A stretch of 64,000 nucleotides of DNA from Muribaculaceae bacterium (GTDB taxonomy: Bacteria > Bacteroidota > Bacteroidia > Bacteroidales > Muribaculaceae): contig JAMPDX010000001.1 of assembly GCA_023665425.1 (NCBI GenBank), forward strand, positions 1-64,000, given 5' to 3'. Below, in pieces: positions 15,165-19,205 of the stretch (positions within the stretch are counted from its first letter, which is position 1; each line of letters starts with the position of its first letter). A program made the position numbers and the translations under genes. The notes under the pieces were generated by a model that was not told where the DNA came from, searched no databases, and saw only the letters and a list, made by a program, of their open reading frames with translations.

Positions 15165-16121
15165 TCAGAAGCCTTCCTCGTCATCAGTCTCAACTGTTAC
15201 GCCCTGTGGAGGCTCGTTGTTGCCGAAAGGCTGAGGGGCAGGCTGCGGTTGGTCGAGGACTTCTCCTGTCTCCATATCCACATTGCCAACTCCGTAGATG
15301 TCCTCATCGGAGAGCTGCGGCTGTTCGTCCACCTGTTGTGATTGAAGTTCCGTGCCGCGACCGATGCGCACTTTGGGATAGGACTTGAAAGCGTGCTTGA
15401 TGCACTTTGCCATGAGGAAGCCGGGGTCGATGTGCACAACTCCGTTGGCATCCATGCCGTAGAGGTCGTTGGCCTTGCCGTTGGGATTTGTCTTTGAGCG
15501 GTTCTGCTTCATGGAGTATCCGGCGAGGCGCACCCAATCCTCAGGGAACATCACCGAGTAGTCGATAGAGCCGTCAGCGCGGGTGATGCGCAGGTAGCAA
15601 GCCACGATGTTGTGGCCAGTGTGTGGCATGTTGCAGGTGTAGGAAACGGATTTGCGACCATCCACATCCTTGAAAGAGAATTCGTCATTGTCGTAGACGA
15701 GGACAGGATTGTCGGCATGGCGGATTTGGCCGGCGCGGGTGCGCATCACCAACTCGCCGTAAGCCGAGACGGTGAGGACGCAGCGTCCCTCCCAACGAGG
15801 TTGGTCACGAGAGCCGATGTTGACGTTGCGGCCAATGAGGTAGGCAAGGGCGCGAGTGCCGGGTTCAAGCGACAGGCCGCAGACGGCCAAGTCGATGAAG
15901 GCTGTGAAGATGCTGAACGGCGTAGCCTTCTGGAGCTTGCCGTTGTCGTTGTCGCGCAGAGCCTTGTTGAAGTAGATGCTTTCACGCTGATAGGCGGCTT
16001 CGCCATTGCCCCACAGGGTCTCATAGACCTGCGTGAAGCGTTCGCGCACGATGGGATGCTCAACGATGTCGAGCGGGCTGAGTTTGTTGATTTCCTCAAC
16101 AGTAAGTTGTAAGTTACTCAT
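15165..16121 (-). CDS. recT: RecT family single-strand annealing protein
   Basis: A 318-residue protein. The middle holds FIDLAVCGLSLEPGTRALAY, VLTVSAYGELVMRTRAG and DPGFLMAKCIKHAF, the usual RecT core. The last 60 residues are acidic and glutamine/proline-rich, like tails that recruit single-strand binding partners. It anneals complementary single strands made by the RecE-like nuclease encoded downstream. Confidence 0.85.
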   Translation of the reverse strand: MSNLQLTVEEINKLSPLDIVEHPIVRERFTQVYETLWGNGEAAYQRESIYFNKALRDNDNGKLQKATPFSIFTAFIDLAVCGLSLEPGTRALAYLIGRNVNIGSRDQPRWEGRCVLTVSAYGELVMRTRAGQIRHADNPVLVYDNDEFSFKDVDGRKSVSYTCNMPHTGHNIVACYLRITRADGSIDYSVMFPEDWVRLAGYSMKQNRSKTNPNGKANDLYGMDANGVVHIDPGFLMAKCIKHAFKSYPKVRIGRGTELQSQQVDEQPQLSDEDIYGVGNVDMETGEVLDQPQPAPQPFGNNEPPQGVTVETDDEEGF

Positions 16122-16169
16122 GATTGATGAGAGTTAAAGTGTTACACATTTGCGGAGTGCCGATGATTG

Positions 16170-16209
16170 AAAAATGGAGGTCGGGACATTTCACCTTAAC
16201 CCGACCTCC
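16170..16209 (-). terminator. Rho-independent terminator before recT
   Basis: GGAGGTCGGG (16176-16185) pairs with CCCGACCTCC (16200-16209), ten perfect pairs with a 14-base loop. On the leftward strand the stem is followed by ATTTTTC. It ends transcripts of the tRNA-like RNA and the small genes upstream, so recT must have its own promoter between 16170 and 16121 or depend on read-through. Confidence 0.75.
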
Positions 16210-16243
16210 GGGTTATCAATCATGTAGCAACTTTCCGCTACAA

Positions 16244-16323
16244 TGGTGGGAAAGGATGGAGTCGAACCATCTGCCGCGCGTTTAAAGGCTGAAAACTTAC
16301 ACGGTGCTCCGAGCTTCATTCCC
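16244..16323 (-). ncRNA. tRNA-like RNA with encoded CCA and a non-standard core
   Basis: On the leftward strand a 7-base GGGAATG pairs with CTTTCCC (one T-T mismatch), followed by A-CCA. The T arm is canonical: GATGG, loop TTCGACT, CCATC. The middle does not fold as D arm plus anticodon arm; the best fold has a 3-pair GCT/AGC mini-hairpin and one long stem CCGTGT-AA-GTTT with AAAC-GCGCGG. It starts two bases after the stop of the excisionase-like gene and is followed by a terminator. It may be a degenerate phage tRNA or a tRNA mimic. Confidence 0.5.
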
Positions 16324-16325
16324 GA

Positions 16326-16562
16326 TTATGGCATTGCGAACCTCAACACATCGGCGGCATTGCAATACCATTTGCCGTTTTGCTTGTTGGTGGGCTTCTC
16401 AAATCTGATTTTGCCCTGCTCAACAAGCCTGTAGAGTCTTTTCTTGCCTCCGACTATCTGCATGGCCTCAGTCTTGCTGAACATTATGCAGTGCCGGTTA
16501 AGGCAGCTGCTGATAATGCTCAGCTGATATTCAGCGTCAGACATTTCCGGCTTATAGTTCAT
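16326..16562 (-). CDS. Excisionase-like small DNA-binding protein
   Basis: About 78 residues from ATG 16562. MFSKTEAMQIVGGKKRLYRL followed by LVEQGKIRFEKP and W-CNAADVLRF is the winged-helix pattern of excisionase/MerR-type helix-turn-helix proteins. It may direct excision with the unseen integrase or act as a regulator. A longer start at 16586 would overlap the next gene. Confidence 0.65.
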   Translation of the reverse strand: MNYKPEMSDAEYQLSIISSCLNRHCIMFSKTEAMQIVGGKKRLYRLVEQGKIRFEKPTNKQNGKWYCNAADVLRFAMP

Positions 16563-16567
16563 AGTGC

Positions 16568-16828
16568 TTATTTCTCGATGTGGCAAGGGTTGGGGGCTTC
16601 GTTTTCGTCGTCACAGCTTTTCTCAAAGGCTATCAGCCAAGGGTCAACTTTGCTCCACCGCTTGTAGAGCTTGCCCATGTAGCGCAAGGCGGCAAAGGCG
16701 AGAGCCTTGTCAATGACGATGCGGAGGATGCTACAGTTCTCCGGTTCCTCGCCGAGGAGGAACAGAGCGCTGAATGAGAAGAGTGCCACAAGAATGACGA
16801 TGCGGATTATTGAGGTTGTCTTGTTCAT
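16568..16828 (-). CDS. Small phage membrane protein
   Basis: An 86-residue protein with one hydrophobic helix at about residues 7-26 and a C-terminal part with MGKLYKRWSKVDPW. It is encoded five bases before the excisionase-like start. No family recognised. Confidence 0.55.
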   Translation of the reverse strand: MNKTTSIIRIVILVALFSFSALFLLGEEPENCSILRIVIDKALAFAALRYMGKLYKRWSKVDPWLIAFEKSCDDENEAPNPCHIEK

Positions 16829-16840
16829 AATCGTAATTTT

Positions 16841-17254
16841 TTAGGCGATGCCACGTTTTACAAGTTTCTTACTGTGTTTTGGGTCTTCAAGCTGTTCACA
16901 GATAGCGACACGCTTGCCGGCGCGTACTATCTTGGGGAGATAGCAGTCGAGGGCATGGTGAGGGAAGCCTGCGAGGTAGATGTAATCTTTGCTACCGCTT
17001 GCCCTGCGAGTGAGGGTAATTCCGAGAATTTCTGAAGCCGTTACTGCATCTTCAGCAAATGTCTCGTAGAAGTCACCGACACGGAACAAAAGGACTGCAT
17101 CCGGGTGCTTGCGCTTCATCTCGCGATATTGTACCATCAGCGGAGGCTCAACAACTCGCTTTGTGGTTGTGCTTGGCTCAAGCTTCACTTCGGTTGTGGC
17201 ATCCAACCAATCGAAGAGGCTGGGTTGGTTGACGAATGTTGTTGTCTTTCTCAT
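16841..17254 (-). CDS. Free-standing MutS domain I protein with clamp-binding-like motif
   Basis: A 137-residue protein that covers only the mismatch-recognition domain of MutS. Residues 36-130 align with MutS domain I ([59 protein letters not shown]), and F62-Y63-E64 keeps the Phe-x-Glu wedge that reads mismatches. There are no MutS domains II-V, so no ATPase. Residues 10-14, Q-P-S-L-F, fit the QxxLF sliding-clamp motif. It may bind mismatched DNA or the clamp and block host mismatch repair during phage recombination; that is inference. Confidence 0.8.
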
Positions 17255-17914: not shown

Positions 17915-17947
17915 CAAAGATACAACAAAACTTTTGTTCCCACCAAA
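17915..17947 (-). promoter_or_regulatory. Leftward phage promoter with built-in palindromic operator
   Basis: On the leftward strand, TTTG (17944-17947) and TATCTTTG (17915-17922) are 21 bases apart, as in Bacteroidota promoters. The spacer holds the 15-base perfect palindrome AACAAAACTTTTGTT at 17924-17938. The repressor gene starts 50 bases to the right, so this palindrome is its probable operator. Confidence 0.7.
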
Positions 17948-19068: not shown

Positions 19069-19142
19069 AAAATCTACATACCAAGAGGTACAACAGCATG
19101 AAAACTGTTATAAACAACCATATTACTAATCAGAGCCGCCCA

Positions 19143-19184
19143 TTCGTAACGAAAAGGTCGTGGGTTCGAGTCCCACTTGCGGCT
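19143..19184 (+). other. Attachment site: 3' half of a tRNA-Thr(CGT) gene
   Basis: The sequence reads as the anticodon loop TTCGTAA, 3' anticodon strand CGAAA, variable AGGTC, T arm GTGGG-TTCGAGT-CCCAC, acceptor TTGCGGC and discriminator T. The 5' half that should pair (TTTCG for the anticodon stem, GCCGCAA for the acceptor) is missing to the left. This is the form of an attachment site for an integrase that targets the anticodon arm. The intact tRNA gene should be rebuilt at the other end of the element. Confidence 0.75.
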
Positions 19185-19205
19185 CAAACTCTAAAAGTAA
19201 CTATG

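What the first reader, a model, noticed from the sequence alone, without database searches (positions are those of the whole stretch)
16244..16323. tRNA-like RNA with CCA and canonical T arm but abnormal core
The acceptor stem, T arm and encoded CCA are as in tRNA, but the D and anticodon arms cannot be drawn in the normal form; a single long stem (CCGTGT-AA-GTTT with AAAC-GCGCGG) replaces them. It sits between the excisionase-like gene and a strong terminator, so it is likely a discrete transcript. It could be a degenerate tRNA, or a mimic that binds the host synthetase, CCA enzyme or elongation factor.
Basis: partly seen in the sequence, partly recalled or inferred. Interest (0 to 1): 0.6.

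Follow-up and report, generated by a model that had tools for sequence, protein, structure and literature searches.

The report
Phage tRNA-like element before recT gene
In a gut-bacterium prophage, the gap before a DNA-recombination gene encodes a conserved RNA with the ends and elbow of a tRNA but no usable anticodon; it belongs to a large, apparently unannotated set of such RNAs that probably mark where the phage's long messenger RNA is cut into single-gene pieces.

Summary
The element has a tRNA acceptor stem (one T·T mismatch), a perfect T arm and encoded ACCA; a 3-bp mini-hairpin stands for the D arm, and a bulged 10-bp hairpin with no anticodon for the anticodon arm. ARAGORN does not call it; Rfam's tRNA model gives 25.3 bits (cut-off 29). 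It is not decay: against its nearest relative (L012), six stem pairs changed and all six keep or gain pairing.

It is one of a large set. Of 112 distinct recT loci in Bacteroidales phages, 61 carry such an element just upstream of recT (0.1 expected in shuffles); ARAGORN gives a normal anticodon to 24. Other early-operon gaps hold more: 93 distinct elements without a normal anticodon call. Seven hits in 319 kb of host chromosome are all ordinary tRNAs. Two subclasses show strong covariation, one inside its extended anticodon arm. Elements tend to start just after a stop codon and to precede the next ATG by 15-49 nt.

Best explanation: RNase P/RNase Z processing signals, a phage 'tRNA punctuation'. 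Cleavage is inferred, not shown. Rivals: an uncut cis-acting leader or a trans-acting decoy. I found no description of the set in the papers searched.

The parts
16244..16323 (-). tRNA-like element, 80 nt with encoded ACCA
   Evidence: sequence; Rfam tRNA 25.3 bits; six of six changed stem pairs kept or gained against L012
16317..16323 (-). acceptor stem, 5' strand GGGAATG
   Evidence: pairs with 16248-16254, 6 of 7
16306..16314 (-). mini D hairpin GCT-CGG-AGC
   Evidence: inner pair T-A becomes A-T in L012, CGG loop kept
16274..16304 (-). long hairpin in place of the anticodon arm; 6 bp, 2-nt bulge, 4 bp, 9-nt loop
   Evidence: T-A becomes G-C, two G·U become G-C, T·T becomes T-A in L012; loop core and bulge size kept
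16255..16271 (-). T arm GATGG-TTCGACT-CCATC
   Evidence: identical in L012
16244..16254 (-). acceptor stem 3' strand CTTTCCC and ACCA tail
   Evidence: C74 present in 128 of 131 elements when not required by the search
16224..16241 (-). small hairpin GTAGC...GCTAC directly after the element
   Evidence: present with different sequences in related leaders
16215..16231 (-). arm GTTGCTACATGATTGAT, complementary to the recT start region
   Evidence: predicted duplex -28.2 kcal/mol, shuffled mean -11.6
16163..16209 (-). terminator-like hairpin GGAGGTCGGG...CCCGACCTCC, T run, and outer 3' arm TCAATCAT
   Evidence: hairpin in the same place in relatives, T run not always
16113..16128 (-). recT start region ATCAATCATGAGTAAC
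15165..16121 (-). recT (single-strand annealing protein)
   Evidence: Pfam RecT E 3.9e-9
16326..16586 (-). small helix-turn-helix (HTH_17, excisionase-like) gene; its stop codon is 2 nt before the element
   Evidence: just under Pfam's cut-off; gap 2 nt
17915..17947 (-). candidate Bacteroidetes promoter TTTG-N21-TATCTTTG of the leftward operon
   Evidence: only TAnnTTTG match on the minus strand between 16050 and 17950

Best explanation
The element is a non-decoding tRNA-like RNA inside a polycistronic early phage transcript. It folds like the top half and elbow of a pre-tRNA, so host RNase P and RNase Z (or exonucleases) would cut on either side of it, parting the upstream mRNA from recT and giving recT a defined 5' end: a phage 'tRNA punctuation'. 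The anticodon arm is free to vary because decoding is not selected, perhaps disfavoured. In the window clade the released recT leader then carries a second control, an arm complementary to the recT start codon plus a terminator-like hairpin. Shown: tRNA-like structure and its maintenance, recurrent placement, co-orientation with recT, presence of host enzymes. Inferred: one transcript, the cleavage itself, and its use.
For: 61 of 112 distinct recT loci have an element within 220 nt upstream, 0.1 expected in shuffles. 93 distinct elements lack a normal ARAGORN anticodon call, while seven hits in 319 kb of host chromosome are all canonical tRNAs. Of 138 elements, 65 have the next gene's ATG 15-49 nt downstream (47% against 20% of random positions, p 6e-13) and 39 follow an upstream ORF stop within 15 nt (28% against 8%, p 2e-12); 24 have both, about 2 expected; the following leader is A-rich. 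Kept features are those of RNase P and RNase Z substrates: acceptor and T arm, GG in the D region in 87 of 93 (62 expected), C74 in 128 of 131. Covariation in two subclasses, including 6 of 9 pairs of one extended anticodon arm; six of six changed pairs kept or gained between window and L012. Host RNase P RNA 256 bits; an RNase Z homologue 282 bits, just under its curated cut-off. One promoter motif for the operon.
Against: No RNA data: neither cleavage nor expression was observed. 51 of the 112 recT loci show no element by this detector. Some slots hold ordinary-looking tRNAs (24 of 61), which fits a tRNA-gene slot too. Some elements lie in clusters without clear genes between them (L226, L230). 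In the window clade a terminator-like hairpin separates element and recT, so recT expression needs read-through whatever the processing. Relatedness among loci makes the positional p-values optimistic.
Confidence: 0.5

Rival explanations
1. Uncut cis-acting leader: the tRNA-like fold stays on the mRNA and tunes recT transcription or translation (for example by binding a tRNA-binding protein or RNA polymerase), together with the anti-start arm and terminator-like hairpin.
For: The arm after the element is complementary to the recT start region in most of 31 related leaders (mean -18.7 kcal/mol; about -10 when shuffled; -15.9 with partners swapped between loci) and the sequence pair changes together between clades.
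Against: The anti-start arm is confined to leaders with long spacing; many loci have only a short A-rich leader of 25-49 nt. Elements also precede unrelated small genes.
Confidence: 0.2
2. Trans-acting decoy: a released tRNA-like RNA that occupies host or defence factors acting on tRNAs (RNase P, CCA enzyme, tRNA-cleaving defence nucleases).
For: Several different elements per phage and extreme variety of the anticodon arm, as in an arms race.
Against: Anticodon loops, the target of most tRNA nucleases, are lost rather than imitated; placement close to stop and start codons would not be needed.
Confidence: 0.15
3. Decayed tRNA gene in a phage tRNA slot, without present function.
For: Closest phages carry tRNA-Gln(UUG) in the same place; L003 looks like an altered Gln form.
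Against: Six of six changed stem pairs kept or gained; covariation in other non-decoding subclasses; dozens of independent non-decoding forms without broken acceptor or T stems. The detector demands those stems, so this last point is weaker.
Confidence: 0.07
4. A working tRNA with an unusual anticodon arm that still decodes.
For: Discriminator A and CCA encoded; some class members have 7- or 8-nt loops.
Against: The window loop (UCAGCCUUU, or CAGCCUU if closed) has no U33 context and the anticodon stem is 10 bp with a bulge; ARAGORN gives no call.
Confidence: 0.03

Closest known systems
tRNA punctuation of polycistronic RNAs (mitochondria)
   Same: tRNA-like folds, often with reduced D or anticodon arms, lie between genes of one transcript and guide cuts by RNase P and RNase Z (general knowledge)
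   Different: Mitochondrial punctuation tRNAs also decode; most elements here lack a usable anticodon; in a phage; cuts not shown
C4 antisense RNA of phages P1 and P7 (RNase P substrate)
   Same: Phage RNA of about 77 nt cut out of a longer transcript by host RNase P at the foot of its first stem (PMC5320573, citing Hartmann 1995)
   Different: C4 is an antisense regulator with three stem-loops, not a cloverleaf with T loop and CCA
Ordinary phage tRNA genes (here tRNA-Gln UUG in sister phages)
   Same: Same genomic slot, same T arm type and 3' end
   Different: Sister tRNA has a normal 7-nt anticodon loop; the window element has none
allo-tRNAs and other irregular tRNAs from soil bacteria (PMC7609411)
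   Same: Odd tRNA-like sequences, some unable to work in translation in E. coli, some in polycistrons
   Different: Allo-tRNAs are defined by a 12-bp acceptor domain (8/4 or 9/3); this one is 7/5

Membership tests
Functional (decoding) tRNA | 7-bp acceptor and 5-bp T stem with TTCRANY loop | tested here: met
   6 of 7 and 5 of 5 pairs, loop TTCGACT
Functional (decoding) tRNA | 5-bp anticodon stem with 7-nt loop, U33 and anticodon | tested here: not met
   10-bp bulged hairpin, 9-nt loop TCAGCCTTT; no ARAGORN call
Functional (decoding) tRNA | score above the Rfam tRNA gathering threshold | tested here: not met
   25.3 bits against 29
Functional (decoding) tRNA | aminoacylation | not testable with these tools
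   needs biochemistry
Processing signal / tRNA punctuation | pre-tRNA-like fold kept by selection | tested here: met
   six of six changed pairs kept or gained; covariation in sister subclasses
Processing signal / tRNA punctuation | located between co-directional genes of one transcript, close to stop and start codons | tested here: met
   single promoter motif for the operon; co-transcription itself not observed
Processing signal / tRNA punctuation | host RNase P and RNase Z present | tested here: met
   the RNase Z homologue is just under its curated cut-off
Processing signal / tRNA punctuation | cleavage at the element's borders | not testable with these tools
   needs RNA-end sequencing or in vitro cleavage
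Decayed tRNA-Gln copy | sequence similarity to the sister tRNA-Gln and loss of pairing | tested here: not met
   different stems throughout; no pair lost against L012
allo-tRNA | 12-bp acceptor domain, 8/4 or 9/3 | tested here: not met
   7/5; definition from PMC7609411

The most novel reading that the evidence does not exclude
Bacteroidales phages carry a large family of non-decoding tRNA-like RNAs (D-arm-poor, anticodon-less or with long structured anticodon arms) as punctuation marks that host RNase P and RNase Z cut to divide early polycistronic transcripts into single-gene mRNAs with short unstructured leaders: phage tRNA punctuation independent of decoding.
Probability: 0.45. Interest if true: 0.78.

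Novelty: new variant of a known kind. Interest (0 to 1): 0.62.

Why it matters
If true, it is a clear bacterial-virus counterpart of mitochondrial tRNA punctuation and a supply of natural tRNA-like RNAs freed from decoding, which show what RNase P, RNase Z and the CCA enzyme really need. It also names an apparently unannotated RNA class in gut phages: the isolated phage BKO1-TP3 carries a 59-nt one before recT that its record does not list. It makes the idea testable in a cultured phage.

Tried and rejected
Exact search for the window's T-arm/acceptor sequence in viral contigs: none. Search for the window's loop-and-stem motif: only the two L012-type contigs. Nucleotide search of 397 family genomes: only fragments of a host or phage tRNA and coding genes. 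Phage DNA search: only the T arm of tRNAs such as tRNA-Tyr. Origin from tRNA-Tyr considered; the tRNA-Tyr of L195 does not share the 5' half. Nearby matches to Rfam microRNA or snoRNA families are sub-threshold chance. MFE z-score was not useful. Papers on phage tRNA-like elements with recT, tRNA punctuation in phages, or irregular phage tRNAs: nothing on this class found in the library searched. My simple ORF caller gave messy gene contexts and was replaced by the stop/start distance test with random-position control.

Full report
OBSERVATION. The finding lies on the minus strand, 16323 to 16244. Read 5' to 3' it is GGGAATG AA GCT CGG AGC A CCGTGT AA GTTT TCAGCCTTT AAAC GCGCGG CA GATGG TTCGACT CCATC CTTTCCC ACCA. 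The D arm is reduced to a 3-bp, 3-nt-loop hairpin, and the anticodon arm is replaced by a 10-bp hairpin with a 2-nt bulge and no anticodon. ARAGORN calls only two host tRNAs in the window and so does Rfam at its gathering threshold; with a permissive threshold the element scores 25.3 bits with the tRNA model, its arm modelled as an insertion. Folding energy alone is weak evidence (z -1.3).

CONTEXT. The element starts 2 nt after the stop codon of a small HTH_17 gene and is followed by a small hairpin, an arm, a terminator-like hairpin with T run, and recT. On that strand the only Bacteroidetes-type promoter motif (TAnnTTTG) between 16050 and 17950 is at 17922, ahead of the first gene of the leftward operon, so the element and recT are most simply part of one transcript.

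RELATIVES. RecT relatives were collected from viral contigs and genomes. The same slot holds tRNA-Gln(UUG) in most close phages, a different non-decoding element in the window, L012, L048 and L003, and many other forms further away. Of 112 distinct recT loci, 61 have an element within 220 nt upstream; shuffled sequence gives 0.1. ARAGORN gives a normal anticodon to 24 of the 61 and not to the other 37; a few of the 24 (for example L031, L061, L065) look like forced calls on extended arms. Loci with HTH_17 relatives show that such elements also occur in other gaps of the early operon. In 20 (pro)phage regions (337 kb) a strict detector finds 58 tRNAs or tRNA-like elements against 0.2 in shuffles, most without a canonical anticodon call; some of the canonical ones in those regions are host tRNAs. 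In 319 kb of the host chromosome it finds 7, all canonical tRNAs. Lambda gives no hit; 50 kb of SPbeta gives two weak ones that do not look like tRNAs. The published Bacteroides phage BKO1-TP3 carries a 59-nt element 6 nt after gp4 and 41 nt before recT, and its record lists no tRNA there.

STRUCTURE IS SELECTED. Between the window and L012, six base pairs differ; all six keep or gain pairing (T-A to G-C, T-A to A-T, two T·G to C-G, G-C to G·T, T·T to T-A), while the loop core CAGCCTT and the size of the bulge stay. In a subclass with an extended anticodon arm (six sequences), 10 of 25 pairs have changes on both sides, six of them in the nine pairs of that arm; no shuffle of 500 reaches the covariation score. 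In a second subclass (ten sequences) seven pairs do, in acceptor and T stems; its arm carries a conserved tandem G·A stretch that one member (L057) replaces by Watson-Crick pairs (my reading of the alignment). So these are maintained RNAs, not wreckage.

WHAT IS KEPT. Across the class the acceptor and T stems are part of the search definition, but C74 was not required and is present in 128 of 131; a GG in the D region occurs in 87 of 93 non-decoding elements (62 expected). Anticodon arms are missing, 3-bp, 8- to 10-nt-looped or long. This is the pattern expected if RNase P, RNase Z and perhaps the CCA enzyme, but not the ribosome, read the RNA (established knowledge of these enzymes). The host has RNase P RNA and an RNase Z homologue, the latter scoring just under its curated cut-off.

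POSITION. Among 138 elements, 47% have the next ORF's ATG at 15-49 nt (random positions 20%), 28% follow an upstream ORF stop within 15 nt (random 8%), and 24 have both where about 2 are expected; the sequence that follows is A-rich (41% A against 29%). For non-recT genes the spacing is typically 17-30 nt, for recT 25-49 nt, or 107-144 nt in the window clade and its relatives. A spacing of 20-30 nt leaves little room for a separate promoter, so the element lies in the leader of the next gene unless cut away.

MECHANISM (inferred). Cuts on either side of the element would leave the upstream mRNA ending just after its stop codon and give the downstream mRNA a short, open, A-rich leader, as suits Bacteroidetes translation (general knowledge). 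In the window clade the remaining leader has a further device: the stretch after the small hairpin (16231-16215) is complementary to the recT start (16128-16113), -28.2 kcal/mol in the window, and also to the outer arm of the terminator-like hairpin. Over 31 leaders the arm-start duplex averages -18.7 kcal/mol against about -10 for shuffled starts and -15.9 for starts swapped between loci; clades with GATTG arms have CAATC starts and clades with CATGTT arms have AACATG starts. That fits translational control of recT, on top of processing.

LIMITS. No transcript evidence; detector hits depend on chosen limits; loci are related, so p-values are rough; the literature library is incomplete, so 'not described' means not found here.

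VERDICT. A real, conserved, non-decoding tRNA-like RNA and a member of a large, apparently unannotated class in Bacteroidales phages; most likely a transcript-processing mark (0.5), with an uncut cis leader (0.2) and a trans decoy (0.15) as the main rivals.

Noticed in passing
L224-L243 (phage early regions), e.g. L216, L221, L222: Repeated short hairpins CCCGTGAGGG (stem closed by a GTGA tetraloop) in gaps of the early operon, 23 copies in 337 kb against 0.7 in shuffles and 1 in 319 kb of host; they recall the boxB hairpin of lambda nut sites and could be antitermination signals. The window itself has none.
   Followed up: partly
window 16113-16231, minus strand: Conserved arm complementary to the recT start codon region, with a terminator-like hairpin between; sequence changes together with the start region between clades.
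   Followed up: partly
window 19140-19190, plus strand: A second tRNA-like 3' half (GTGGGTTCGAGTCCCAC TTGCGGC T CA) with a small TTCG-TAA-CGAA hairpin before it, near the probable right edge of the prophage; could be an attachment-site remnant of a tRNA gene or another element of the class.
   Followed up: no
L079, L080, L086, L154: tRNA-like elements of 125-141 nt upstream of recT with long inserts in the anticodon loop, several sharing motifs such as TTTTCAATAGG.
   Followed up: no
L037, L038: A 125-nt tRNA-like element before recT with a long insert in the anticodon region.
   Followed up: no
window 16841-17254, minus strand: Phage gene encoding only domain I of MutS (mismatch-binding domain), E 1.9e-34.
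   Followed up: no
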